Source: a virus
Strand: one strand, 5' to 3'
Virus record (IMG/VR): IMGVR_UViG_3300030090_001225
Location: 1 to 22,260 of that record
Length of the DNA stretch: 22,260 nucleotides
Shown here: positions 2,390 to 16,328 of the stretch, piece after piece
Layout: every line of letters starts with the position of its first letter
Position numbering within the stretch: the stretch's first letter is position 1
Translations under genes and position numbers: made by a program
The notes under the pieces: model-generated
What the model was told of the DNA's origin: nothing
Seen by the model: only the letters and a program-made list of their open reading frames with translations
Databases searched by the model: none

Positions 2390-2804
2390 GATCTTCTCCT
2401 GTTTTCATCATGTTACTCAAAACATTTGCACGGTCACCCACTTGCCTCGCCCACTTGGAGTCTAGCATTTCCACACCAGCCTCTTCGTATCTTCCGTTCT
2501 CAATGTGAGACAATGTGTTCACAAACTTGGAGAGGGAGCCAAGACCCATGTTAAAAGCCATGTCTACAACAACTCTCTGCCTGACATCATCAAGGTCCGA
2601 CCACCACGAAAAAGCACGTTCCACTTCTTCCTGAAAATCCCTGATATCATTGGCAAGCATCAACTCAATCTCGTCATCTGACAGCCCTCTGTCCCTGAGA
2701 TTGCGTCCTACGCCAATCGTTTCAATACCTTCGGTATCTAGGTACACCTTGGATCGCACCCCTTCGTGAACCTTTAACTGTGCTATTAACTTGTCAATAT
2801 CCAT
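2379..2804 (-). CDS. T4-type lysozyme (GH24 endolysin)
   Basis: A 141-residue muramidase predicted to cleave the beta-1,4 bond between MurNAc and GlcNAc in peptidoglycan during lysis. The active-site region reads HEGVRSKVYLDTEGIETIGVG. Glu14, Asp23 and Thr29 have the same spacing as the T4 lysozyme triad Glu11, Asp20 and Thr26. The later MAFNMGLGSLSKF region matches the family's second conserved block. There is no signal peptide or signal-anchor, so it should accumulate in the cytoplasm until a holin opens the membrane. A strong Shine-Dalgarno (AAGGAGG) precedes the ATG by 9 nt, the best in the window, and there is a 15-nt gap to the upstream dioxygenase gene. The gene overlaps the holin candidate by 11 nt. 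Confidence 0.93.
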   Translation of the reverse strand: MDIDKLIAQLKVHEGVRSKVYLDTEGIETIGVGRNLRDRGLSDDEIELMLANDIRDFQEEVERAFSWWSDLDDVRQRVVVDMAFNMGLGSLSKFVNTLSHIENGRYEEAGVEMLDSKWARQVGDRANVLSNMMKTGEDHGY

Positions 2805-2813
2805 ATCTCTTTA

Positions 2814-2820
2814 CCTCCTT
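2814..2820 (-). promoter_or_regulatory. Strong ribosome binding site of the lysozyme gene
   Basis: AAGGAGG, read on the minus strand, lies 9 nt before the lysozyme ATG at 2804. Most neighbouring genes rely on stop/start overlap, so this full-length site suggests lysozyme is translated independently and at a high rate. Confidence 0.8.
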
Positions 2821-3533
2821 CAAGTTACTGGTAACTTGTCACTATAAAATTTTCGTGACCAGCGTCGGTGCCTCAACAACGGTCTCCATATATAGGGAAA
2901 AGCCCAGCTTGCTTTCATGACCGTCCAGTTAAACAGGTTATAGGGAAACTTCATTGGTCTCATGTAATCCAAGAAAAGGATTACCCGTAACTGATCAGTC
3001 TCATTAACGGCGTAGTGGTTGTATGTGTCATCAAACAAAACAACCTTGCCATTTCTCCAATGGTACTTGTCACCCTCAACATTGATGTGGCACTTCTCAG
3101 GATCAGGTATAATCAAACCCATATGCATACGCAGAACACCAGCCCACGGTCCTTCGTGGGGGTTGAGTGCCTTGTCAGGACCAAGCACTGAAAGATAGGC
3201 AGAGACGACTGACTTGTGCCTGTTTAAAACTTTCATAAGCACAGGAAAGTTTGCGGCATTTTTCTTGAACGTCATGCCAGCACCCCTGAGAAAAAACATA
3301 CGCCACTTGTCATCATTGCTGATGTATGTCTGATCAGGTGATATATCCTGAAAGGGTGCGAAGTCATCATACCTCGCCATGATCTTCTTGGTCTCAGCCA
3401 AGATGTGAAAATAGTTTTCTTCCAGTTCTCTTGATAGCGGAGTGAGGGAAGGCTCAAAGAACTTCCTGTCCCCCCAAAGACAAGCCTTGCGGAAAGGTTT
3501 CTTTACAATCTGTGCAAGCTTGTAAGCACTCAT
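2820..3533 (-). CDS. Aspartyl/asparaginyl beta-hydroxylase-like Fe(II)/2-oxoglutarate dioxygenase
   Basis: A 237-residue protein of the AspH/LpxO-type hydroxylase family (PF05118-like), which uses Fe(II), O2 and 2-oxoglutarate. The visible core is NPHEGPWAGVLRMHMGL (about 124-140), then HWRNGKVVLFDDTYNHYAVN (158-177) and LRVILFLDYMRP. By comparison with human AspH, the iron ligands would be His137 and His173. Gly139 stands where other dioxygenases have Asp, and Arg183, ten residues after the second His, would hold 2-oxoglutarate. The last 40 residues are aromatic and basic, but I see no clear membrane anchor. The start overlaps the stop of the giant gene as ATGA, and lysozyme follows. The substrate is unknown: a virion or giant-protein side chain, a host protein, or a lipid A acyl chain (as for LpxO) are options. 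Confidence 0.85.
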   Translation of the reverse strand: MSAYKLAQIVKKPFRKACLWGDRKFFEPSLTPLSRELEENYFHILAETKKIMARYDDFAPFQDISPDQTYISNDDKWRMFFLRGAGMTFKKNAANFPVLMKVLNRHKSVVSAYLSVLGPDKALNPHEGPWAGVLRMHMGLIIPDPEKCHINVEGDKYHWRNGKVVLFDDTYNHYAVNETDQLRVILFLDYMRPMKFPYNLFNWTVMKASWAFPYIWRPLLRHRRWSRKFYSDKLPVT

Positions 3534-6500
3534 TGTAAACCTATTTGTCTGAGAACGGGCACTGCCGCTGTAATGGCTAACTCTTGTTGCCTTATAATAT
3601 TAAGAAGCTCTCTTTTCTTTGACGGATCAATGGGAGAGTTAAGAATCTGGTTCTTTTGTTGACGAACTTCCTTGAGTTGGTTGCGTATGTCTTTCATGCT
3701 TTCTTCAAGAGCCAGAAGTTTTGGTCTTTCTGTGCGGACTTCTATGATCTTATCTACATCGCCTTCTTTTTCAGCCTGAGCTAAAGCATTAACCGCTTGT
3801 CTGACAAGCCTGTCTAATTCGTAAAACTGCACTACCGTGCCACGGCTATTGGGGTCTTGGAAAAAACTCCTGACCAAAGGCAGGTTGTACCAATCTTTGT
3901 CGGGCGGTAACGAAGTGTCAGTAGGTTGAAAGGCATCAACCATATGACTTGCGGCAGATAAAGCGTAGCTTCCTAAAGTGCCTGTATACCCCTTGATTAA
4001 ATGGTCAAGTTTAAGGGGAGACATGTTCAGTTCTTTACCAAGGGCTATAGCAAAGCTACTGGTGCCTTGATATTTTTGTTGATCGGGATCAAGCCCCTTC
4101 ATGTAATACGGAACAATTTCTCTACCAGTAAAGGCAGAATAGTTGGTTCTCACTTCTTCCAGTGGCTTAATAAATTGGGGGAAATCAACCTGAAAAGTTG
4201 ATCGTATATTTCGGTCTAAGGAATCCAGAACATCTCTTCCTAAATCAGAACCCCCGCTCCACTGAAAAATTCTTTCAGGCATAACCTTGAAAATAAATCC
4301 TACTTCAAAAGGCGTGGGTATTTTAAGACATGGACCGCCAAATGGAGTAGGCACAAACCAGTTTAGGTCTCTGGCTTCAGGCGTTGCATTTTTATAGCAC
4401 TCAGAATCCCTCATCAGCATTGTATATAAAACAGTTGTGCCGATTATAAATGATGCCTTAGCAGCAAAAGCTTTACGGGTCGCGTCGGGATTTGCTGTTT
4501 CTTTGTTAACCCCAGCACGATAAAGAACATCCAGTCCCTGTATACGGGCATTCAAGAAAGGAATGACAGCAGTCAACAAACGTATCTCTGCGCTTGCCCC
4601 CCTCCTGTTAAAGTTAAGAACTTCCAAAGCCTCGAATAAAGCCTGAGCTTCGTTGCCCGTTCTTTCCAGCACTCTTTTGTAAACTGCAATTCTTGTCGAA
4701 GATTCAGAGGCGTTGGTAAGCACGGTCGTTGCGTCCCATACTTTTTTGAAGGGACTAGCAGCTTTTTCCGCCACTCCTTTGGGGCTTTTTGTTTTAACCC
4801 TGCTTTCGACATAACGAGCCATATCTTGCGGTGTGCCAGCAAAATCGTACCCACCAGAAACGCCGCCAGTCCGCAATGCTGTTCCAGCTTCTTTACCTAA
4901 AAGGGCGTCCACAGCACCCTGTAAACTACCAATAATCGGAACGTAATTTTGACCTGATGTGACCCAAGCACTTAGCGTATCACGCAACATATTACGCAAC
5001 ATAAAGCCGGGGTCTCTGGTGACCAGTTCTCTTAGCACTCTGGCAGGAGTAGCAAGATAACCCACAAAAACACTATCCATAATGGTGTCAGTGTTCTGAG
5101 ACAGGATAGTCATGGCGGTGTAAAGGAAAGGATCGACAATCTCAAAGTACCTATCCTTGCCGTCTACCCTGATCTGCACCGTGCTTAGGGGGTTATCTCC
5201 TGACTGGTCAACTTCAAATGCCAGTTCCAAGGCTAAAGAATCTCTAATAACTCTTTGGGCAGCAATGTTTTTCATGCCGCCTTGGATAGCTGTTGCTGCG
5301 TTCCTAGCCACATTGTCAAGAAAATCATCTACTCTGCGCGGTGCGGAATACAATTCAATCTTTGCGTCAGGTCTTGTTTGACGTGATGCACGAACAGCGG
5401 CAACAGCTTTGTTATAGCTGTCATATTCTTCTGGCTGTATCTGACCATCGATTGAAATTTGAAACGCCCTGCCAGCGCCAAGAAGTTTTTTGTCTACCCT
5501 CTTTCCGTCGAGCGGTACTTTTGTTGCTTTCTCTCCAGCAATATATGCAAAGTCCTGATCTGGGTAAAAGAACGACATCTCCTGCTTGACGCCAAATCCC
5601 TGCTGCTCCTGCCTGTAGTATGGCGTGTAGTCAGCAGTATCGATCCATGTCTGCCCCATCTCTTCTGTAATCAGACCAGTGTCTACCATGAACTGAACAA
5701 GGTAGCTGTTCCATACCTGATACTGATCAAAGACATCTGCAAAGTATTCATACTTGTCACCAAGGGACAGACCGTTAGCAATATCCTGCTCAGTCATGCC
5801 AGAGTCTCTGCCCTCTGCGTTTAGCCTTACCGCCCTCCTTGCCTGAGCATAAGTGCCAAACTGAGATGTAACACGAGCCTCCATGACAGGCTCCAGTATT
5901 TCGGCAAGACCCGTTATTGTTTGACCGTCCACTTCGTCAACTACCTTAAAAACTCCTGCTTCTTTGTCGTACACGGGTACGCCGTCATACCAAGCTGCCT
6001 TAGTTAACTGGGCATGTTGCTCTGACATGATCACAGCTTTAAATGCATTCGCGTCTGCGAGTGTTTGCCCAGCCAACAACCGACTTACTTTATCTGCAAG
6101 AATTGAAATTATTTCGTACTTGTTTACATACCTTTGCCGAAACTGGCTTTTAATCAAATCCCAGTTGTTACTGAACAAGACACTGTTTTTGTAGTCACCA
6201 AGAATTGCACTTAGAAAAGCCTGACCTGCCGTCTCTTCTTCGTTAACGGCTTGCGTTCTTCTAATTGTTTCCTGAACTTCAGGGCTTTCGTCTTTTACAG
6301 TGCCGCCCCTAGAAAACTTTTCCTTAGCCTTTTTATTAAGAGTTAAAGTGGGGCGACCAGTCGGCTTTTTAGTTTTGAACGTAAGCGCAGTTTCCTGAGC
6401 CGTCGTAGACAAAGCCGAAAAATTTGGACCAAGAGCGTTTGCTTTTCTATATTGTTCTACGTCTTTGCGAAGATTGTCTTGTGACAACACTTTGCTGGTG

Positions 6501-9500
6501 GGATAAGCAGTTGTTATTGAAAAGAATACTCCCTGCCCTTTAGCAGTGACCCTATCAAAAACTATCTTGATGCCAGTCTTAGAGCCTTCTGGTGTCCATA
6601 TCATGTCCTGACCACCACCACGACGACCCTCAGTAATTTTAAATGCTGATGTGCCAACGCCAGATACCATTGCCTCCATATAAGCATCAAGAGCAGCAGC
6701 GATGGCAGCGTTTGCTGAAGTAAACGGCAAGTCTGGGATAGCTCTAAAATCGTCGTCATGTAATGCGGCATGAACCTGACCATAGCCCCTGCCATCTTCG
6801 TAGTTTATTCCTGCCGCCATACGGACATTAAGCCGCTGACCGTCGTTGGTTTTTAAAACGCCCCAGTTATCGCTGCGTTTCCCGTCAGCCCTTGCTCTTT
6901 TTACAAACCTGTTAGGCGCATTATTACGAGGGTCTTGGGGATATTTACGGGAGAATCTTTCGTCAGGGACAAATGAGTCTTGCGTATTAAAGTTGGTTTC
7001 GTCCCGAAGTTCCTGAAGATTGACAGGCTCTACAAGATTTTCAATGCCCTCGTTAATAACAAACTCTGGCATTATCCCGACTTTCTGGTCCGCATAAACT
7101 GTATCAGCGGCAGAAGCATTTTCATTTTGCTTGGCTGCTGGTCCGAAGTTAACCCAAGAATTTTGTCCACGGGTTTCACTAGCCAGTGCCGCTCGTGCCA
7201 AGGGACTAAACATAACCGCATGGCTGGCATATGCGGCATCTTCTCCAGCGGCTCTGAACCCAAAGCCTTCCTTAACGTGCCCGAAGTAATCGTGAACCAC
7301 TCGGAAGATGTCATTCACCCTCGCCCGCCGACCTGATATAAACTCGTCAGTAAGGCGAAGCATCGGGTTATTAGCTACTTCTTCAGCGGTTACCCCGTCC
7401 ATGCCGTACCCTGCATCGGTGGGGAAGACATACATATGGTTGTTTTGTTTTACATCTTCGATCATCTCACGCGGCGAGGCGGCGTAAGGGTCAACGTCAG
7501 ATGGGTAGAACTCTACCTCAAGACCAGTGTCTTTGATGAAGTCATACTGCGTCATGACCTCTTCTGCCAAAGCGTCATAAGCCGCTTGCGTAAAGGAATC
7601 CTCTGGGGTGTTCGGCATATCTTCGTATGCTTGCGCTATACGAGTTGACCGTTCTCCGTCCACTGATTCGTAAACGTAATTGCCAACAAGCTCAGGCACA
7701 CTGCGTCCAACTGTCTGCCCGTAATCACGAGCAGCTTGTCTTGCTGGTGCAAAAGGCTCAGTCGGAACTGGACCTGTGCCGGGGATGTTATAAGAAGCTG
7801 GTAGCCCTTCTACTCTTTCTTCTTCTTGCGAGGTAGCACCCGACCTATCCTGTGCCTGTAGCTGTCTCTCGCTTCGAGATAAGCTTCCGCTGTCTTGAAC
7901 TGGTCTCTCCTCGGCGGGTTCGGTACGCCGACGACTGAAGCGTTCCCTGCCTCCGTATTTGAGCCTTGCGCTGGTGATGGAGTCTTCGAGTAGAGGTTCA
8001 AGTTCGCTCCGCTTAAAATTCTTGACCCTTTCTGCAACAGCGGGTCCGTATCTTTGATGAATCCTTTGTATGTAGCTACCACCTGTTTTCTCCTGCGTGT
8101 AATCATTTCCTATAAATTCAGATTCGTAAAAGCTGGCCTCAACGTCTAAATCAAAACCAATCTCTTCAGATATGGCACTAATAGCATCTATTACATCACC
8201 ATCAGGACTAAGGCGGGAAGCCAGTGTCTTCCCCCTACCATCAAGGAGAATGAGCATTGCGGAATTACCGTTCTCATCAATGGTTGAGGTGTAGCCCTTG
8301 ATTAAGGTGTCTGCCTCATCCAGACGAGCATCCGCTATTCCAGCCTTTCGATCCTTAGCAAGTTTATTAGCAGCTTTCTTTGTAGTCGCTAGGTCGGCTT
8401 TGCGTAACTTGTCCCACAGTATGGACATATTTGTGTCATTGTTCAACAAATCTTTTGACACATCGGTCGGTCGTATTTGCAAAGCAAGCTTAGACTTGGA
8501 TGTCTGTCTGGGCAGCACCCGATAGGAAAGCATTCCTGTTTGCTCTAGCAAAAATCCGATTATGCTTGCCATATCTGTCATGGCTTCTGGAGATGCCACA
8601 ACCTGTTCTGTCATATTCGGATTAATTGTATCGTCCATCCAGCCGCCCGTAGCGTGGATGCGATTTATTTCAGCAATTCCTGTCACGTCTCTGGCAAAAT
8701 CAGTAGCAGCTTCTGCCGCTCGCTCTGTAACTTCTTTTTGCCCGACAGCGGGTAACTGATAATAATCTACAAACGTCTCGGAGTAGGGAGAACCATCTCC
8801 AAAAGCCACTTCAAATGGCAGGTTCCTGATATTAAACAGAATAGAATCTTCGGCTGTTTGTCCCGGTTTTCCAAGGAATTTTGTTGTCGCCATCCAGCCA
8901 ACAGACTGTACCTGTGACGGTGTCCACCCGCCTCCCTTATAGTTTATGTCATTAAGGTAATCACTGAGTGCCCTCAAAAAATCGCCTGAACGCTCGTACT
9001 GGTTTTCTCCCGGTGACCCTGACGTGTCAGTCTCAACACGCACACCGTAGTTTTCCCTTAAAAACTTTTGATAGACTTTATCAACAAACCCAGTGTCCCT
9101 GAGGGAATGAACGTCTGCTACCGCAGGGGCACCACCACGAACATCGTTGCCCATCCATGATCGCGTTTCTTTAAGCAACCCAGCGTCTACAAAGTCATAT
9201 AATTTTTGTGCCCCGCCTGACGGAAGCTCTCCTCCAGCCTCCATTGCCATCCAGAAATTAAATAGTTTGTTTGCGGCTAAACCAGCTTTTACTTCTTGTG
9301 AAACAGGAGCTTGTGCTGCTTGCGTAAGAGCTTGCTCTCTTGAGCGAACAGCATTCATCGCCGCTGTTGAAGGACTGGCCTGTTGGTTAGCCATAAGCCA
9401 CGCGGCTAAAAAGTTCATCCAGTCTTTACCAAAATACTTTTGATAAGCCTTAGCTGCTTCTGGATACCACTGACGTGCAGCAGCTATTTCTGCATCATCG

Positions 9501-12500
9501 ATACGACCTTCTGTCTGATTAATCCAATCATCAAATGTCATCTTACCGATAACGGCGACTACATCACCTTCATTATTAAATACTTCTTGTCTCTGGTTTC
9601 TCGGTCCTGTTGATGTTGTCGCGCCCACAACATCGGTTCGCCCCGCCTTCCTGCGTAACCGTGCGTCTATCTCTTCTTGCGGAGGAGTAGGAAAAGGACT
9701 TTCCCCAACAGGTGTTGGTTTTTTGCGAGAGCGTTTCCTAGAAAATTTTTCTTCTACTGGAAAATCAGCAACTCTGCCTTTGGCTTTTTCTGCTGGTTTA
9801 ATTTTTGCAGAACGAGCAGTTGTTGTTCGTCTTCCTGTAGAGGGCGGCACACCAGCATCAAGACGCTCGAAGATTTCATTGCCCGTAACAATGTCTACGT
9901 CTGCTGCCGCTTCTTTTACAAGCCTAAAGAACTCGGCAATTTTACGAAAGATGCTTCGCACCTTAGGCGGGAACACACGACGACCTGCGGCATAGTCTCT
10001 AAACGCTTCCGCCACAGCTTCTTCTACAAGCATTTCTTCGCTGGTGTTTGTTCCCTCAAGAGCCGCAACTCTATCATCGTAGTATGTTTGGTCAGTGCCG
10101 GGACGCTTTGCTTTTCTTACAAAAGTCTCTAACGCGGCTTTTTCCTGATCTGTTACAACACCAGCCTCATAAGCTGCGTGTATAAATTCGTGATCAAGAA
10201 CCTCGGAAAGGGCGGCTATGTTTTCCCTGTCTGATTTTGACGGGTCAGTAACAACATCCAAAGCCAACCGTATGGTTTTTAAAAACTGACCGGCCTCACC
10301 AGATTTTCCCTTGCCCTCTTCTGTCCGATAGACTCCTTCAGCATCAGGCTGAATTTCTCCAGTCTCAATACTATCAATCAGGTTATTAAATCTAAGCCTA
10401 ACGTCCGCTAACGCAGGATTAGCCTTTATCCTTGCTTGGAACCTGTCATTGATTGCTCTGGCTAACGGGCGAAGTTTTTGTAAAAATTCTTGTTTCTTAA
10501 CACTAGGGGGCGGTGTTCTTTCGGGGCTACCCCTTAGGACAACTCTTTTCTTTACCTTTCCATCCTTATTCAATATCCCGCGACGGATAAGTTCACGCCG
10601 TATTTCGCTGGATATCTCTTTTCGTCTTGTGCCCTTGATATTTGGGGCACCGATAGTTTCCATAATTAGTTTGTCTGTAATACGTCCTGTTTTACGAATA
10701 GCTTTAGCCACATCAGAAATTTGCTGTGCCGTAAAGTGTGGGTACTTAATGACAGGAATAGACGTTTCTGTAGCAAACTCTGGCATAGCATCCAGACGTT
10801 CAAACAAAACATTTCTCTGTACCTGAGACATATTTTGCGGCATTGATTTGCCTGTTGTCCGCAAAGCAAATGTCTTAAAAGCCCCGTCTCCAAACCTAAT
10901 ATTTTTTGTTGACGCTAAATCCTCTATGTCTCTAACCGTAACATTAAGGGATGCATCTTCTGTAATTGGCTTTTTCTTAGCAATAATATTGCTAAGAGTT
11001 TTGTTGGAAGCTCCTGTTTCAGCTACCTCTTCAATAGTATACAAGCCATCATTTTGAACAGTCTCTCCCGGTCTAAGAGCAACAGAAAGAAGACGCTTGC
11101 GATCTATCTGAGCAGCAATTTTTTTGCCGACTTCTTCGCGGCTAAAAAATCCCAAAGGAGTAACTGTCTCTTTTGCAGCCTCTAGGGTAGCAGCGGTTTC
11201 TTCAATCTTGTTATCTTCTAACGCTCGCCGTGCGCTCGCTTCTGTAAACTCTATTTCAGCAGATTCTATAGCTGTTGGCACTCGTTCGGTAAGAAGGTTG
11301 GCAGCTTCTTGAGCTTGATCAAGGGTTTGGAAAGTGGGCGTTCTAACTTCGCCAACACTGTTGACTACAGCAAAACCACCATTAGGCATTTCACGAACAG
11401 TAAACGGACCCAAGGGTGCTGCTGCACCAATGTCTTCTCCTAAACCTGTTGGAGCAACGTCATTGATTGACTCGTCAATAATAGTTTCTACAACGTCAGC
11501 AGGAGTGTCTGTTGTGAACTCGCCTTCCTGATAAGTCAGAAGCAAGGGACCATCTGGGTCAGGCATAACCTCTTCCTGAACTTTCTTTGCCCGTGCCTCT
11601 TCTTGTTCTTTTAAAAGCTTTTCGGCTTGATCTACTTCTTCCTGAGTTCTTGTTCTTTTAAATCTTTCGGTAACGCCTCTTGCTGTGCCGCCCATCAATG
11701 CACCAGCAGCACCAGCATTAATCATCATCTTTCTTAGTTCTGGACCATCAAGCTCCTGACCCGTGGTGTAAACCGCTGTTACTTCCGCTATCGCTTCTTG
11801 CATAGCTTCGGTAATTCCCTCAGTAGCCATGCCCTTGCCAGCAGCTTTGAGGTATTCTCTCTTGATAGGTTTAAGCAAGGTTCTCTGTGCAACGTCTTCG
11901 GCTACTTCAGTGCCAAATCGTTTGGCAAGTTGCCCGCCAATTTTCCCCGGCAAGATTGTATCCAGTGCCGCGATAGCTGTGCCTCCAGCAAAAGCCATCT
12001 CTGGGGCTACTACACTAGGGTCTTTTGACTTGATTGACTCTTGTACTTCGCCAACGCCAAGACCAAAAGAAGGGATAAATGCGCCCAACAAGCCGCCAAT
12101 AGTCCCACCTATTGCGGCTCCCGGTATTGCACCAACGCCGCCAAAAAACGCTCCTATTGCCGCCCCTGATTTTGCACCCAGCTTTGCCCCTATCAAACCA
12201 CCAGCAACTGAAGGAGCAAACATAACTGTTTGTTCGGGGATGGTGTCTACCATCCACTCACCCACGTCACCTAAGTTTTCAATGTCGGTAAATTGTATCG
12301 CAGGGATTTCGCGCTTTTGCTCTCTTTTAACAAAAGCTTCACGACCTTCCCGCCCAAATTCTGTAAGGCTTTCAGAATCAAATAGTTCACCTGTAGCCTC
12401 AACAGCGGCTCCCCCCAAAAGTCCACGAACCTTGCTAACGCCAGACTCAAAAGACTCGCCTATACGACCGAAAAGACTTGCTTCGTCCCGTGCGGCATAG

Positions 12501-12625
12501 GGGTAGACGTATTCTGGTTTAGGTAAACCAGCAATATACTCTTGGACTGCTTGGTCTATAACGGAATCTGGAGTTCCATCTGGAAACTCAAGTATTGTCC
12601 CGTCTGCTTGAACAGCCTGTATCAT
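3530..12625 (-). CDS. Giant polyvalent protein (3031 aa), likely virion-ejected, LPD38/PLxRFG-like C-terminus
   Basis: Residues 1-35 form a small module (FPDGTPDSVIDQAV) also recalled at the head of other phage ejection proteins. Residues 138-192 are Gly/Ala-rich and hydrophobic, like a membrane-inserting glycine zipper. A zincin-like motif HEFIH is at 812-816, with possible third ligands Glu868, Glu869 or Glu873. A motif E-(K/R)-F-S-R recurs with Phe at 961, 1563, 1891 and 2104, each beside charged or Pro-rich linker, giving five blocks. The third block has VHDYFGH (1777-1783), GEDAAYASHAVMFSPLAR and GQNSWVNFG. The fourth ends with a TTAYPT strand (2038-2043). The last block resembles LPD38/PLxRFG polyvalent proteins: YTPYYRQ, RDPGFMLRNMLRDTLSAWV (near 2540), FNRRGAS (near 2675), a membrane-like helix near 2730 and a terminal coiled coil (about 2925-3010). 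The start overlaps the upstream stop as TGATG. The position equals T7 gp16. Ejection is inferred from context; domain names are from memory. Confidence 0.85.
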   Translation of the reverse strand: MIQAVQADGTILEFPDGTPDSVIDQAVQEYIAGLPKPEYVYPYAARDEASLFGRIGESFESGVSKVRGLLGGAAVEATGELFDSESLTEFGREGREAFVKREQKREIPAIQFTDIENLGDVGEWMVDTIPEQTVMFAPSVAGGLIGAKLGAKSGAAIGAFFGGVGAIPGAAIGGTIGGLLGAFIPSFGLGVGEVQESIKSKDPSVVAPEMAFAGGTAIAALDTILPGKIGGQLAKRFGTEVAEDVAQRTLLKPIKREYLKAAGKGMATEGITEAMQEAIAEVTAVYTTGQELDGPELRKMMINAGAAGALMGGTARGVTERFKRTRTQEEVDQAEKLLKEQEEARAKKVQEEVMPDPDGPLLLTYQEGEFTTDTPADVVETIIDESINDVAPTGLGEDIGAAAPLGPFTVREMPNGGFAVVNSVGEVRTPTFQTLDQAQEAANLLTERVPTAIESAEIEFTEASARRALEDNKIEETAATLEAAKETVTPLGFFSREEVGKKIAAQIDRKRLLSVALRPGETVQNDGLYTIEEVAETGASNKTLSNIIAKKKPITEDASLNVTVRDIEDLASTKNIRFGDGAFKTFALRTTGKSMPQNMSQVQRNVLFERLDAMPEFATETSIPVIKYPHFTAQQISDVAKAIRKTGRITDKLIMETIGAPNIKGTRRKEISSEIRRELIRRGILNKDGKVKKRVVLRGSPERTPPPSVKKQEFLQKLRPLARAINDRFQARIKANPALADVRLRFNNLIDSIETGEIQPDAEGVYRTEEGKGKSGEAGQFLKTIRLALDVVTDPSKSDRENIAALSEVLDHEFIHAAYEAGVVTDQEKAALETFVRKAKRPGTDQTYYDDRVAALEGTNTSEEMLVEEAVAEAFRDYAAGRRVFPPKVRSIFRKIAEFFRLVKEAAADVDIVTGNEIFERLDAGVPPSTGRRTTTARSAKIKPAEKAKGRVADFPVEEKFSRKRSRKKPTPVGESPFPTPPQEEIDARLRRKAGRTDVVGATTSTGPRNQRQEVFNNEGDVVAVIGKMTFDDWINQTEGRIDDAEIAAARQWYPEAAKAYQKYFGKDWMNFLAAWLMANQQASPSTAAMNAVRSREQALTQAAQAPVSQEVKAGLAANKLFNFWMAMEAGGELPSGGAQKLYDFVDAGLLKETRSWMGNDVRGGAPAVADVHSLRDTGFVDKVYQKFLRENYGVRVETDTSGSPGENQYERSGDFLRALSDYLNDINYKGGGWTPSQVQSVGWMATTKFLGKPGQTAEDSILFNIRNLPFEVAFGDGSPYSETFVDYYQLPAVGQKEVTERAAEAATDFARDVTGIAEINRIHATGGWMDDTINPNMTEQVVASPEAMTDMASIIGFLLEQTGMLSYRVLPRQTSKSKLALQIRPTDVSKDLLNNDTNMSILWDKLRKADLATTKKAANKLAKDRKAGIADARLDEADTLIKGYTSTIDENGNSAMLILLDGRGKTLASRLSPDGDVIDAISAISEEIGFDLDVEASFYESEFIGNDYTQEKTGGSYIQRIHQRYGPAVAERVKNFKRSELEPLLEDSITSARLKYGGRERFSRRRTEPAEERPVQDSGSLSRSERQLQAQDRSGATSQEEERVEGLPASYNIPGTGPVPTEPFAPARQAARDYGQTVGRSVPELVGNYVYESVDGERSTRIAQAYEDMPNTPEDSFTQAAYDALAEEVMTQYDFIKDTGLEVEFYPSDVDPYAASPREMIEDVKQNNHMYVFPTDAGYGMDGVTAEEVANNPMLRLTDEFISGRRARVNDIFRVVHDYFGHVKEGFGFRAAGEDAAYASHAVMFSPLARAALASETRGQNSWVNFGPAAKQNENASAADTVYADQKVGIMPEFVINEGIENLVEPVNLQELRDETNFNTQDSFVPDERFSRKYPQDPRNNAPNRFVKRARADGKRSDNWGVLKTNDGQRLNVRMAAGINYEDGRGYGQVHAALHDDDFRAIPDLPFTSANAAIAAALDAYMEAMVSGVGTSAFKITEGRRGGGQDMIWTPEGSKTGIKIVFDRVTAKGQGVFFSITTAYPTSKVLSQDNLRKDVEQYRKANALGPNFSALSTTAQETALTFKTKKPTGRPTLTLNKKAKEKFSRGGTVKDESPEVQETIRRTQAVNEEETAGQAFLSAILGDYKNSVLFSNNWDLIKSQFRQRYVNKYEIISILADKVSRLLAGQTLADANAFKAVIMSEQHAQLTKAAWYDGVPVYDKEAGVFKVVDEVDGQTITGLAEILEPVMEARVTSQFGTYAQARRAVRLNAEGRDSGMTEQDIANGLSLGDKYEYFADVFDQYQVWNSYLVQFMVDTGLITEEMGQTWIDTADYTPYYRQEQQGFGVKQEMSFFYPDQDFAYIAGEKATKVPLDGKRVDKKLLGAGRAFQISIDGQIQPEEYDSYNKAVAAVRASRQTRPDAKIELYSAPRRVDDFLDNVARNAATAIQGGMKNIAAQRVIRDSLALELAFEVDQSGDNPLSTVQIRVDGKDRYFEIVDPFLYTAMTILSQNTDTIMDSVFVGYLATPARVLRELVTRDPGFMLRNMLRDTLSAWVTSGQNYVPIIGSLQGAVDALLGKEAGTALRTGGVSGGYDFAGTPQDMARYVESRVKTKSPKGVAEKAASPFKKVWDATTVLTNASESSTRIAVYKRVLERTGNEAQALFEALEVLNFNRRGASAEIRLLTAVIPFLNARIQGLDVLYRAGVNKETANPDATRKAFAAKASFIIGTTVLYTMLMRDSECYKNATPEARDLNWFVPTPFGGPCLKIPTPFEVGFIFKVMPERIFQWSGGSDLGRDVLDSLDRNIRSTFQVDFPQFIKPLEEVRTNYSAFTGREIVPYYMKGLDPDQQKYQGTSSFAIALGKELNMSPLKLDHLIKGYTGTLGSYALSAASHMVDAFQPTDTSLPPDKDWYNLPLVRSFFQDPNSRGTVVQFYELDRLVRQAVNALAQAEKEGDVDKIIEVRTERPKLLALEESMKDIRNQLKEVRQQKNQILNSPIDPSKKRELLNIIRQQELAITAAVPVLRQIGLQ

Positions 12626-14841
12626 CAGTTTATACGCTTGCCTGTTTTGTCGTATCGAATTGTTTTGGTAGCGGCTGGATCACCAACTGGTACGCCCTGT
12701 ATTTTCAAAACACTGTTTATTTGATTTTGGAGAGCCTGTTTTCGAGCTTTTAAATTTCGATACTCTGTCCGCACACCTGCTTCTGGTCGCCCTGCCCCAT
12801 ACATTTTGATGTAATCTTCTTCTGTAAATTTTAATTTTGTATCTAAATCGTCAATGGCGCTTTGATAACTTTTTACTAACTGCTGATTTCTCAGGGCCGT
12901 CATAAGATCAGTACCTTTTAAATCTTTCTTAGTCTTAGTTATCTCAGACCTTTGCCCTTCTAATTGTTTCTTTCTATTTTCCAACGCAGTAATTTCGGGT
13001 TGGGTCAAGGGCTTCCCTGTCGCACTTTTGCCACTAGAAAGTATTTCGTTAATTTCAGTAATATCAGATTGAGTTCTCGCAAGCTGGTTTGCAAGAGAGT
13101 TCTGTTCTCTCGCTTCTCTTGCTTGCCCAAGCGCAATTCTTGCTTTTTCACGCTCTTCACCGGTTTTTGCAGTAGCCAAGTTTTGCTCTGCTGTAACGAA
13201 TCTTAAATTTAATTCTTGTGTTGTTTTGAACCTGTTAAAAGCTTTTTCATTAATATCTCGCCGTACCTTTTCTAGGTCGCGTATCTCTGACCGTAGTTTT
13301 CTAACCTCGTCTTTTCTGCCAGCTTTTTCTGCTACTTCTAACTGGGTCAGTTTAGCTTCTGCATCAAACAAAGCATTTTCCTGCTTCCTGACTTCACTCA
13401 GACTTTTACCATAGGTAGCAATAGCAGGAGCAGCCTCACCTATTGCCTGACCAATATAAGGACTTTTAGTGCCCGCAATCCTAAGGGCAGCTTCGAGAAG
13501 TGCCAGACCAGCCGCCTCATCACGTTGACCGCCAATGTCGTCTTTTCTGGCACTCAAAGCCGTAGTTAAATCTTTATACGCAGAGTCAGCCGTTAAATTA
13601 GTTTGTGCTTCCGTTAGGGCTTTATCAGCAGCACCTCTTGCAGTAAGAAAAGATGGACTCATCGTGGGAGCAACAAACTGTTTTCCCTTAATTTCTGCTA
13701 TGCGTTTTGCGAATGGATCAAAATTAGTTGAAGTGTTTGTTCCAGCTACAGCGTCTTCAGATTTTTTCAATAAAGATGCAACATCCACAGGACTGTTAGC
13801 TTTTTCTGCTGCTTTTAAATCTCGTTGCGATAAACTGGTTGACAATAATTCCGTAACATCCCGTTTCATTTCATCGCTAAAATTTTCATTCGTTAGAAAA
13901 GCTTTAAAATCTTCGTCATAATTTTTACTTTCCCTTAATCTGTTAGCCGTTGTTCTTACGCCTTCTAAATAGCTAGGGTCACTTCGCATAAGGGCTACTT
14001 GGGATTCACGAGTAGTGCCTACCGCTTCAGGTACGACAGTTGACACCGCTTTAGGTACGACAGTTGACACCACTTCAGGTTCGACGCCGCCCGCACCGCC
14101 CCCGGCGACGGGCACCACGTTCAGCGTCTGCTTCAGATTTCGCGCATTCGCATCCCGCGCTTTATTTTGCGCCTCTAAGATTGCTTGCCTGTAGGCATCG
14201 GGGTCACGCAAAAACCTTTGCAAAGAACCTACAGCTTCCCTTCTACCCCTTCGATCATACAAAGGATCGTTGGGTTGCTGCGGGAAAAGCCTATCCATTG
14301 CTGTTGCCGCTCTAAAACTTGGTGATCTTTTTGTAGCGGCTGGACTAAATCTTGCGTAAGGAGAGCCGGGATAACTAGGGTCATAAAATTCCGCAGCAAA
14401 CCTTTGTGGATCAAAAACACCTCTACGAAAAAAATTGTCTCTATTAAAAGATATCCCATCTTGCGCCTTGATTTTTGCAAGACCACCGTCAGCCATACGA
14501 GTTACTGGTAACTTATTCGCCATCGGTTGGGGAGAAGGTGGCATTGTTGTCATTGACTGCTCAATGGGCAGGTTCTGCGGTTGTGTAGCCATCCTGTTCT
14601 GGGGACGTGCCAAAGCACCAAGACCCTGAGCCATGTTCGTTGCGGGGTTTAGTATGTCTTCCGCAACAGTTGTCGCAGCCTGAGCTTGGTTCTTTTGATA
14701 CTCTTCCTTCATTTCCTTGCGGCGACCCATTTCGGTCATCACCAGAAACTGGGGAACAGTGCCTTTGGAAAATACGTCTCGAAGCTGATTGTCGCTTAGG
14801 TCTTTCAGCTTGTCTTGAATCTGAACAAGATTTCCTACCAT
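12625..14841 (-). CDS. Coiled-coil internal virion protein, T7 gp15-position homologue
   Basis: A 738-residue protein. Its N-terminal 60 residues include LSDNQLRDVFSKGTVPQFLVMTEMGRR, a helical module I recall from marine phage virion proteins. A Pro/Met/Gln-rich linker follows, with the motif MADGGL near residue 115. A low-complexity Val/Gly/Ala section with an 8-residue repeat covers about 225-275. Long Glu/Lys/Arg/Gln-rich helices covering about 470-720 predict a coiled coil. Its length is close to T7 gp15 (747 residues), and it lies between a gp14-like and a giant gp16-position gene, so I infer a part of the ejected core. No enzymatic motif is visible. AGAGG lies about 10 nt before the ATG; the stop overlaps the giant gene start. 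Confidence 0.75.
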   Translation of the reverse strand: MVGNLVQIQDKLKDLSDNQLRDVFSKGTVPQFLVMTEMGRRKEMKEEYQKNQAQAATTVAEDILNPATNMAQGLGALARPQNRMATQPQNLPIEQSMTTMPPSPQPMANKLPVTRMADGGLAKIKAQDGISFNRDNFFRRGVFDPQRFAAEFYDPSYPGSPYARFSPAATKRSPSFRAATAMDRLFPQQPNDPLYDRRGRREAVGSLQRFLRDPDAYRQAILEAQNKARDANARNLKQTLNVVPVAGGGAGGVEPEVVSTVVPKAVSTVVPEAVGTTRESQVALMRSDPSYLEGVRTTANRLRESKNYDEDFKAFLTNENFSDEMKRDVTELLSTSLSQRDLKAAEKANSPVDVASLLKKSEDAVAGTNTSTNFDPFAKRIAEIKGKQFVAPTMSPSFLTARGAADKALTEAQTNLTADSAYKDLTTALSARKDDIGGQRDEAAGLALLEAALRIAGTKSPYIGQAIGEAAPAIATYGKSLSEVRKQENALFDAEAKLTQLEVAEKAGRKDEVRKLRSEIRDLEKVRRDINEKAFNRFKTTQELNLRFVTAEQNLATAKTGEEREKARIALGQAREAREQNSLANQLARTQSDITEINEILSSGKSATGKPLTQPEITALENRKKQLEGQRSEITKTKKDLKGTDLMTALRNQQLVKSYQSAIDDLDTKLKFTEEDYIKMYGAGRPEAGVRTEYRNLKARKQALQNQINSVLKIQGVPVGDPAATKTIRYDKTGKRIN
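14021..14085. repeat. 24-bp direct repeat, 2.7 copies, inside the coiled-coil gene
   Basis: Two 24-bp units at 14021-14044 and 14045-14068 differ at one base; a third partial unit (17 bp) at 14069-14085 has further changes. The unit core is GGTACGACAGTTGAC. On the minus strand they encode an 8-residue period, VSTVVPxA. The period is a multiple of three, so copy number can change without breaking the frame. It is a protein-level linker repeat; there is no spacer structure. Confidence 0.85.
14086..14165. other. GC-rich patch of unusual codon use
   Basis: Directly after the 24-bp repeats, 30 of 35 bases at 14086-14120 are G or C, and high GC continues in part to about 14165. The surrounding gene is visibly AT-rich. 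On the minus strand it encodes NVVPVAGGGAGGVEPE and preceding residues with almost all-G/C third positions. Either Gly/Ala/Pro composition or a recombined foreign segment could explain it. Confidence 0.55.
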
Positions 14842-14853
14842 CTTACTTACCCT

Positions 14854-15909
14854 CTATCCTAATAGTTTAGACAAGCCAGCAGCACCCAGACCAAGGCTTA
14901 AAAGAGGTGCATAAGGACTTGGGGGTGGCTCCAGCCGTCTAACTTCTGACTCTGGCGTAATCGGCACACCACGCAGAATAGATGACAAATATTGAAGCTG
15001 ACCTCTTTCGTAATCCCTTTGGTTAACAAAGTCCTGATAAGCCAAATCAAGCTCTGACTGTCGCCGCAGTCTTTCAGTTTCCCCAACACCAGCAAGGGCA
15101 GCAGCCTGTTCCAGCCGTGCTTTTTGTTTGGCTGGTGCCGCTGTCATAAGAGCCTCTGCACCTGCCAGACCAAGACGATCAGCAGTTTCTGCTGCTTGCA
15201 ATCGTCGCTGTTGCTGTGCCGCAGCATCAGCTAACGCCTGTGCCCTTGTCTTTACAGCTAATTGCTGTTGTCCCGTAGCCGCCGCTAATGCTGTATCAAA
15301 TGCTCTTGATCGTGCTTGGGCACCCATTTCATCTAGCCGCTCATCAAGATCACGCCGTGCTAAAGAATCTGCTACGGCTCTACGGCTACCACCAAAAGCA
15401 CCGCCCTGTATTGCTGACGCATCTCTACCAGCCTGTGCCTCGGCAAATCTCCTCTGGGCTGAGGCTTCTTGTTGGGCTAATACATTTTCCAGATAAGGAT
15501 TTACGAAACTCTGCACCTGAGTGCGGGGGTCTGTAGCAGCCAAAACAGCTTCGGTAGGCGCAGCGTATTGTGCAAACGCAGTTGACGGATCAAACTGTGC
15601 AGCAAGATCGGTGCCTGTAAATTGTGTGGGTCGGGCGACCTGCTCTAAAAACTCTCCACCAGCAACGTCAAATGATGCCGCCGTTGTAGGATCACCAGCT
15701 ATATCGGTAACCATTTTTTCTGAGCCAGAGCCTGAAGCCGTAGGCTCCGCAATTCTTGCCTGTTGATAAGCTTCATATGGAAGCTCTGATTGAATCTCAG
15801 TCCTGTCCAGCAACCTTTTAAAATACGGTTCTGCATACTCAGGGAGATTGCTTGTTGTCTGCGTTACCTGTGATGTTTGTGGTGTAGACCCACCGCCGCC
15901 CTTGCCCAT
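14854..15909 (-). CDS. DNA-ejection-type internal virion protein, T7 gp14-position homologue
   Basis: A 351-residue protein that begins Gly/Ser/Thr-rich (MGKGGGGSTPQTSQ). The middle is a long Ala/Gln/Arg-rich helical region with the signature GGAFGGSRRAVADSLARRDL (about 168-187). That signature is common, from memory, in ejection or pilot-type proteins of short-tailed and marine phages. The C-terminus is hydrophobic (LLSLGLGAAGLSKLLG), possibly membrane-interacting. T7 gp14, its positional equivalent, is 196 residues and inserts in the outer membrane during ejection; whether this one does is inference. GGAGG sits 7 nt before the ATG, inside the end of the upstream gene, with only 2 nt between the two genes. 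Confidence 0.75.
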   Translation of the reverse strand: MGKGGGGSTPQTSQVTQTTSNLPEYAEPYFKRLLDRTEIQSELPYEAYQQARIAEPTASGSGSEKMVTDIAGDPTTAASFDVAGGEFLEQVARPTQFTGTDLAAQFDPSTAFAQYAAPTEAVLAATDPRTQVQSFVNPYLENVLAQQEASAQRRFAEAQAGRDASAIQGGAFGGSRRAVADSLARRDLDERLDEMGAQARSRAFDTALAAATGQQQLAVKTRAQALADAAAQQQRRLQAAETADRLGLAGAEALMTAAPAKQKARLEQAAALAGVGETERLRRQSELDLAYQDFVNQRDYERGQLQYLSSILRGVPITPESEVRRLEPPPSPYAPLLSLGLGAAGLSKLLG

Positions 15910-15911
15910 AG

Positions 15912-16328
15912 CTAAACCTCCATACGATAAGAATAATACTCAGATGTCCAACCGATTTTTTTCAACTTTCTTTCCCAACCTTTTCGTCCAATGAACTCAA
16001 CAAACTTGCACCCGTTATCGTCAGCCCATCTTTTAATAAAATTATTAACCTCTTCAAACCAGTCATCGTAACCAGAACCACCAATAAACAAAGTCTGCAA
16101 AGACCTCGCACCGGGATGTTCTACAAACTTGGAGGTCCAAGCAGCTTTTGTTTCTTCGTTGTCTTCATCATATATTAAAAACAAATGCTGCTTACCTGCT
16201 TTTACTTCTTCGTATACTGATCCGATATCCCAACGCCCACCTGAATATTGAATAGCTTTAGCTAAAAGATTGGCAACATGCGGCCATTCCTTATCAACAT
16301 ATTCTGGAGGAACAAGGGATACAATCAT
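15912..16328 (-). CDS. GNAT-fold-like protein, T7 gp13-position homologue
   Basis: A 138-residue protein with an apparent acetyltransferase-like fold order: N-terminal helices, a strand HLFLIYDED, a second strand SLQTLFIGGSG, the helix WFEEVNNFIKRWADDNG, a strand FVEFIGRKGWERKLKKIG, and a terminal strand YYSYRMEV. The GRKGWERKLKKIGW ending matches the pattern of phage GNAT-like proteins. T7 gp13, which lies at the same place in its operon, is of similar length and also looks like a GNAT fold. No obvious acetyl-CoA pyrophosphate loop (Q/RxxGxG/A) is seen, so an enzymatic role is doubtful and an assembly role is more likely. The ATG overlaps the previous stop as ATGA. Confidence 0.65.
   Translation of the reverse strand: MIVSLVPPEYVDKEWPHVANLLAKAIQYSGGRWDIGSVYEEVKAGKQHLFLIYDEDNEETKAAWTSKFVEHPGARSLQTLFIGGSGYDDWFEEVNNFIKRWADDNGCKFVEFIGRKGWERKLKKIGWTSEYYSYRMEV
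15917..15921 (-). promoter_or_regulatory. Ribosome binding site of the 351-aa gene
   Basis: GGAGG on the minus strand, 7 nt before the ATG at 15909. It lies inside the last codons of the upstream GNAT-like gene and supports the chosen start. Confidence 0.75.

What the first reader, a model, noticed from the sequence alone, without database searches (positions are those of the whole stretch)
3530..12625. A 3031-aa polyvalent protein replaces T7 gp16: possible ejected multi-effector cargo
The gene order 138, 351, 738 and 3031 aa parallels T7 gp13, gp14, gp15 and gp16. The last protein is more than twice gp16's length and has no transglycosylase motif that I can see. It carries an N-terminal module, a glycine-zipper-like hydrophobic patch, a zincin motif, at least two further globular domains and an LPD38/PLxRFG-like C-terminus. 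Ejected giant proteins are known in other phages (N4 virion RNA polymerase). The inference is that this protein travels in the virion and brings several activities into the host.
Basis: partly seen in the sequence, partly recalled or inferred. Interest (0 to 1): 0.75.

Follow-up and report, generated by a model that had tools for sequence, protein, structure and literature searches.

The report
Phage giant protein carrying swappable cargo
This is one of a large family of giant phage proteins, almost certainly packed in the virus particle, with fixed ends, a peptidase and an exchangeable middle of effector-like domains; a short repeated motif between the domains may mark where it is cut apart inside the host.

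Summary
In detail: a 3031-aa ORF (3530-12625, -) follows genes of 138, 351 and 738 aa and precedes a hydroxylase and the lysis genes. It is an LPD38 polyvalent protein, a class described in 2017 (PMC5512222). Its C-terminal ~930 aa is a conserved, well-predicted helical region far larger than LPD38. My profiles of it match the C-terminus of JC1 gp69, a 4515-aa virion protein proven by mass spectrometry. T7 gp16 kinship was not found; the likeness is positional. In 45 full-length relatives (2.2-4.1 kaa) the ends are constant, a zincin is present in 42, and the 480-2400-aa middle varies; 26 of 39 middles carry an ADP-ribosyltransferase. This one carries instead block B (unknown), block C (HDYFGH...E; also a solo gene in bacteria beside an AdoHcyase-like gene) and block D (weak BECR-RNase-fold matches). 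New here: a junction motif, [RKQ][FY]S[L/R][RK], lies between the modules. It is strongly enriched (65 versus 1 for the reversed motif), never lies inside a profiled domain, and occurs only in giant proteins that have an HExxH. Best reading: a virion-borne cargo polyprotein. Packaging is very likely by homology; ejection is likely; cleavage at the motif is a testable inference.

The parts
3530..12625 (-). 3031-aa giant polyvalent protein (whole gene)
11576..12625 (-). N-terminal module, residues 1-350, with glycine-rich hydrophobic patch at ~139-187 (window 12065-12211)
   Evidence: phrog_6958 virion structural protein E 9e-28 at 54-350; DUF6861 sub-threshold
9746..10528 (-). zincin-type metallopeptidase region, residues 700-960; HEFIH at 812-816 (window 10178-10192)
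   Evidence: HExxH conserved; profile found in 42 of 45 full-length relatives
9734..9748 (-). junction motif 1, KFSRK (residues 960-964)
7943..9733 (-). block B (residues 965-1561), fold not resolved
   Evidence: occurs in the order C-B instead of B-C in L027/L029/L031/L032; low model confidence
7928..7942 (-). junction motif 2, RFSRR (residues 1562-1566)
   Evidence: invariant FSR in all 8 relatives aligned
6986..7825 (-). block C core (residues 1601-1880), HDYFGH at 1778-1783 and E1817; predicted metal-binding enzyme
6944..6958 (-). junction motif 3, RFSRK (residues 1890-1894)
6320..6943 (-). block D (residues 1895-2102), candidate BECR-fold RNase
   Evidence: VIA-align rows BrnT, colicin D, CdiA-CT, HigB at Z 2.7-4.4; two H and one T invariant in 7 diverse copies
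6305..6319 (-). junction motif 4, KFSRG (residues 2103-2107)
3533..6304 (-). conserved C-terminal region E (residues 2108-3031), helical, includes LPD38 at 2743-2917 (window 3875-4399)
   Evidence: Pfam PF18857; AF2 pLDDT 79, pTM 0.73; 595 confirmed viral relatives; JC1 gp69 match
12625..14841 (-). 738-aa protein, likely internal virion partner
   Evidence: conserved position in relatives; function inferred
14854..15909 (-). 351-aa putative DNA ejection protein
   Evidence: phrog_4287 E 3e-6; conserved position
15912..16328 (-). 138-aa protein
   Evidence: phrog_7642; conserved position

Best explanation
The 3031-aa product is a virion-borne polyvalent protein of a podovirus-like phage. Its constant ends (the N-terminal module with a glycine-zipper-like, possibly membrane-active patch, and the ~930-aa C-terminal LPD38 region) load it into the particle and send it out with the DNA. 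The middle is exchangeable cargo: here block B (unknown), block C (a probable metalloenzyme) and block D (a probable BECR-type RNase). Once in the host, or just before, the built-in zincin may cut at the [RKQ][FY]S[L/R][RK] junctions and free the cargo modules. Shown: constant ends, variable middle, module permutation, the junction motif, and homology of the C-terminal region to a proven virion protein. Inferred: ejection, cleavage, and what each module does.
For: E2/E3 profiles hit the C-terminus of JC1 gp69 (E 1e-31 and 3e-25); gp69 is in purified JC1 virions with 51 unique peptides and carries LPD38 at 4195-4401. The N-terminus matches virion structural phrog_6958. Gene order (526-, 138-, 351-, 738-like genes, then the giant, then AspH/lysozyme) recurs, in whole or part, across IMG/VR relatives. 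Of 45 full-length relatives, 45 have E, 42 the zincin, 15 C, 6 D, 3 B1. Middles of 39 relatives: ART-PolyVal in 26, DUF7178 in 13, NUDIX in 2. B and C are swapped in order in L027/29/31/32. Junction motif: 65 hits versus 1 reversed in 94 nonredundant giants; 0 of 40 inside profiled domains, p 2e-5. An unbiased DNA scan for DIRYSLR found 8 of 22 hits in ORFs of at least 600 aa (all of them over 1100 aa) versus 0 of 19 for the reversed peptide, p 0.004. The motif occurs in 25 of 56 complete giants with HExxH (or the zincin profile) and 0 of 12 without, p 0.0025.
Against: No proteomics exists for this phage. JC1 gp69 itself lacks the junction motif, and about half of the giants with HExxH lack it, so motif and peptidase are associated but not tightly coupled. 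The giants are related to each other and differ in length, so the Fisher tests overstate independence. Block D fold matches are individually weak (Z under 5), block C has no PDB match, and block B is unresolved. Zincin activity and specificity are unknown; the motif could be a docking or flexible hinge element.
Confidence: 0.72

Rival explanations
1. It is an ejected virion protein that works as one intact chain (conduit or DNA-protecting protein); the FSR motifs are only flexible hinges that let the giant chain thread through the tail, and the zincin acts on host or virion proteins.
For: P22 and T7 internal proteins act as assembled conduits (established knowledge; P22 in PMC8402733, abstract). 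N4 virion RNAP is packaged uncut although it has an MPTase domain (PMC5512222). Some giants have zincin but no motif.
Against: The motif has a specific sequence, [D/E]-[IV]-[RK]-[FY]-S-[L/R]-[RK], not a generic flexible composition; the reversed sequence is nearly absent.
Confidence: 0.35
2. It is a T7 gp16 counterpart by descent: an internal core protein that builds a trans-periplasmic channel, with its transglycosylase lost.
Against: No sequence or structure match to T7 core proteins was found for region E; the tail-side 619-aa protein is LUZ24/PaP3-like. T7 RNAP and connector models did not match four relatives, but the controls did not ring either, so that test is inconclusive.
Confidence: 0.08
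3. It is an early, non-virion enzyme made in the infected cell.
For: Block C exists as a smaller gene outside giants in mycobacteriophages and bacteria.
Against: The gene lies between structural and lysis genes in relatives with context, and the C-terminal relative JC1 gp69 is in virions.
Confidence: 0.05

Closest known systems
Polyvalent proteins of phages (Iyer et al. 2017, PMC5512222), LPD38-bearing
   Same: Very long, several dissimilar domains, zincin peptidase, LPD38, late/virion gene context.
   Different: Carries blocks B, C and D, none of which matched a Pfam model; the E region is much longer than the LPD38 model; a repeated junction motif that my search of that paper's text did not find described.
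JC1 / Bcep22 DarB-like giant virion protein (gp69, 4515 aa)
   Same: Homologous C-terminal region E2-E3 with LPD38; last gene of the virion module, before lysis; shown in virions by MS.
   Different: gp69 has an N-terminal transglycosylase, a methylase-helicase and LPD3, and no junction motif.
Marine LPD38-zincin giants with ART-PolyVal cargo (IMG/VR)
   Same: Same ends, zincin, gene order.
   Different: Here the ADP-ribosyltransferase is absent and blocks B, C and D stand in its place.
T7 gp16
   Same: Position in the internal-protein gene cluster.
   Different: No transglycosylase match and no sequence or fold match found.
N4 virion RNA polymerase
   Same: Giant packaged protein with an MPTase domain (PMC5512222).
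   Different: No RNA polymerase domain match here.

Membership tests
Phage polyvalent proteins | several domains of different predicted activity in one chain | tested here: met
   zincin, block C, block D and LPD38 regions are distinct and separately mobile; activities themselves untested
Phage polyvalent proteins | a domain restricted to the class (LPD38) | tested here: met
   PF18857 E 1.3e-31, 110.6 bits against cut-off 27
Phage polyvalent proteins | virion/late gene neighbourhood | tested here: met
   between tail/ejection genes and lysis genes
Phage polyvalent proteins | packaged and injected | not testable with these tools
   only by homology to JC1 gp69
Zincin MPTase of polyvalent proteins | HExxH plus downstream glutamate | tested here: met
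   HEFIH 812-816 and EEAVAEAF; profile in 42 of 45 relatives. No Pfam peptidase model matched.
BECR-fold RNase (block D) | BECR fold | tested here: inconclusive
   many BECR toxins among the best VIA rows for this region but Z only 2.7-4.4
T7 gp16 family | sequence or fold similarity | tested here: inconclusive
   none found in PDB sequence or Foldseek searches of region E; other regions less well tested
T7 gp16 family | lytic transglycosylase domain | tested here: not met
   no such Pfam or NCBIfam match at E<=1
PLxRFG proteins | match to a PLxRFG model | tested here: inconclusive
   NCBIfam scan gave no match to this protein; whether that release holds a PLxRFG model was not checked

The most novel reading that the evidence does not exclude
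Phage polyvalent proteins of this family are true polyproteins: a conserved junction motif ([DE][IV][RK][FY]S[L/R][RK]; KFSRK/RFSRR here) is the recognition site of the built-in zincin, which cuts the ejected giant into separate effectors, so that any module flanked by the motif can be swapped in as cargo.
Probability: 0.35. Interest if true: 0.82.

Novelty: new member of a known kind. Interest (0 to 1): 0.55.

Why it matters
Iyer et al. (PMC5512222) proposed that MPTase domains free the parts of polyvalent proteins after packaging or injection, but named no cleavage site in the text I searched. The junction motif found here gives a concrete site to test, a way to find module edges in many unannotated giant phage proteins, and a search handle for new effector domains such as block C. 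If block C acts on S-adenosyl compounds, it would be a candidate early counter-restriction enzyme.

Tried and rejected
Sequence search of the whole protein against PDB gave only chance matches. Profiles of block C and region E against PDB sequences found nothing credible. Region E had no convincing PDB fold match by Foldseek or VIA-align; the best VIA rows, Z about 7, cover only the C-terminal helices. A likeness of block C to the 2-His-1-Glu iron site of aromatic amino acid hydroxylases (HxxxxH...E) was considered from memory and not supported by any search. Block D has no tblastn match in the GenBank phage set. T7 RNAP, T7 connector and P22 portal families did not match four relatives; the first two controls did not ring, so nothing follows from those. 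Homology of JC1 gp62-gp68 to the upstream genes was not found. PADLOC had no match for the giant. The solo form of C is rare in bacteria (1 of 369 and 1 of 395 genomes, each the seed genome itself).

Full report
Observation. The ORF, its length and its neighbours are as described. The 3031-aa gene overlaps its two neighbours by start/stop codons and is under protein-level selection: compared with L001, codon-position differences are 500/326/1345 and 1003 codons differ only synonymously. The window is a whole 22.3-kb viral record, probably a fragment. Genes run tail fibre (543 aa), fibre assembly (174), 619-aa virion protein, 101, 526, 138, 351, 738, 3031, AspH-like hydroxylase, lysozyme, spanins.

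Domains. Pfam finds LPD38 at 2743-2917 (E 1.3e-31). PHROG finds a virion structural family at 54-350, phrog_3170 at 1623-1826 and long unnamed families over 2480-3020. The zincin motif HEFIH lies at 812-816. NCBIfam finds nothing in this protein.

Family. A scan with the C-terminal region found at least 595 encoded relatives in IMG/VR; the 45 nonredundant full-length ones examined (a few from GenBank phages) are 2215-4069 aa. All 45 have region E; 42 have the zincin profile upstream of a variable middle. That middle is 479-2405 aa long. A Pfam scan of 39 middles finds ART-PolyVal in 26, DUF7178 in 13, NUDIX in 2, and single DUF3990, DUF4258, ASCH and others. C occurs in 15 of 45, D in 6, the first half of B in 3. 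In L027/L029/L031/L032 the order of B and C is reversed. The giant sits at the same place in the operon in the relatives with context. This is the pattern of constant delivery ends around exchangeable cargo.

Virion evidence. Profiles E2 and E3 match the C-terminus of Burkholderia phage JC1 gp69 at E 1e-31 and 3e-25. JC1 gp69 (4515 aa; transglycosylase, methylase-helicase, LPD3, LPD38) was found in CsCl-purified virions with 51 unique peptides (PMC9144972). Hence residence of this protein in the virion is very likely; ejection follows from the class (PMC5512222) but is not shown here. T7 gp16 kinship has no support beyond position; the 619-aa tail-side protein is related to LUZ24/PaP3-type podoviruses.

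Blocks. C: AlphaFold2 pLDDT mostly 80-95. Invariant H, HxxxxH, H, E and RGQN residues in 35 diverse copies suggest a metalloenzyme. It is common in giants, and smaller, non-giant genes carry it in mycobacteriophages (446-aa ORF) and in some bacteria. In four distant bacteria (Enterovibrio, Aquimarina, BD1-7 clade, Ruegeria) the solo gene lies beside a conserved AdoHcyase-NAD-like gene (44-55% identical between them) and a DUF3293 gene or fused tail; DUF3293 weakly resembles the S-AdoMet lyase family in one case (E 0.0066). This points, as inference only, to S-adenosyl chemistry. D: predicted alpha/beta fold; VIA-align rows for this region include BrnT, colicin D, CdiA-CT toxins and HigB at Z 2.7-4.4; two histidines and a threonine are invariant in seven diverse copies. 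B: unresolved. E: pLDDT 79, pTM 0.73, mostly helical, no convincing PDB match.

Junction motif. FSR is kept at the junctions in relatives down to about 50% identity; at junction 1 it drifts to LSR or FNR in L010, L026 and L024. An independent LPD38 giant, L039, has FSRR on both sides of block C. Across the family the general form is [DE][IV][RK][FY]S[L/R][RK]. In 94 nonredundant proteins of 1500 aa or more the motif occurs 65 times and its reversal once. It is never inside a profiled domain (0 of 40; such domains cover 24% of the searched region; p 2e-5). An unbiased scan of viral DNA for DIRYSLR codons put 8 of 22 hits in ORFs of at least 600 aa, all of them over 1100 aa, against 0 of 19 for the reversed peptide (p 0.004). 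Complete giants with the motif all have an HExxH or zincin-profile match (25 of 56), and none of the 12 without has it (p 0.0025). These tests ignore common descent and length, and the motif was defined on part of the same set, so the p-values are optimistic; the DNA scan is the most independent of them, although two of its eight giants (L221, L216/L217 as a pair) are duplicates or already known. No paper in the open library names the motif, and the 2017 paper's text does not mention a linker; subscription papers were not searched.

Mechanism. Most likely: packaging and delivery by the constant ends, cargo in the middle, possible release by the zincin at the motif. Packaging is supported by homology; cutting is the open, testable step. 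The finding is a new member of a known class. Its added value is the junction motif and the cargo comparison.

Noticed in passing
window 2820-3533 (-): 237-aa aspartyl/asparaginyl beta-hydroxylase-fold protein, nearest to OlsC/LpxO lipid hydroxylase models (E 1.6e-57 and 2.4e-34 but far below their cut-offs), placed next to or near the giant and lysozyme genes in several relatives: a possible phage lipid A or ornithine-lipid hydroxylase.
   Followed up: no
L188, L189, L192, L194 around 8800-12200: Bacterial solo block-C gene with an AdoHcyase-like gene and DUF3293: a conserved, uncharacterised two- or three-gene set.
   Followed up: partly
L203 7394-14083: In Micromonospora-type genomes a solo block-C gene lies between an N-6 DNA methylase and a protein kinase (nearest PADLOC models PD-T4-6 and mad6), with a UvrD helicase downstream: a possible defence island.
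   Followed up: partly
L107 2159, L113 1958, L157 1304, L160 2613, L169 1932, L134 1270 (residues of the giant ORFs): HEGRHR motifs in the middles of several relatives, probably DdrB/ParB-like domains.
   Followed up: no
H1, H2, H3: Synechococcus phage MinM2, Planktothrix phage Pag-Yong1 and Pra-JY27 records are all 65,014 bases with identical hit statistics despite different stated hosts: probably the same genome.
   Followed up: no
residues 11-25 of the giant (window 12551-12595): N-terminal 'EFPDGTPDSVIDQA' motif; L010 has 'IEFPDGMSRDEILNI' although the first ~12 residues otherwise differ: possible loading signal.
   Followed up: no
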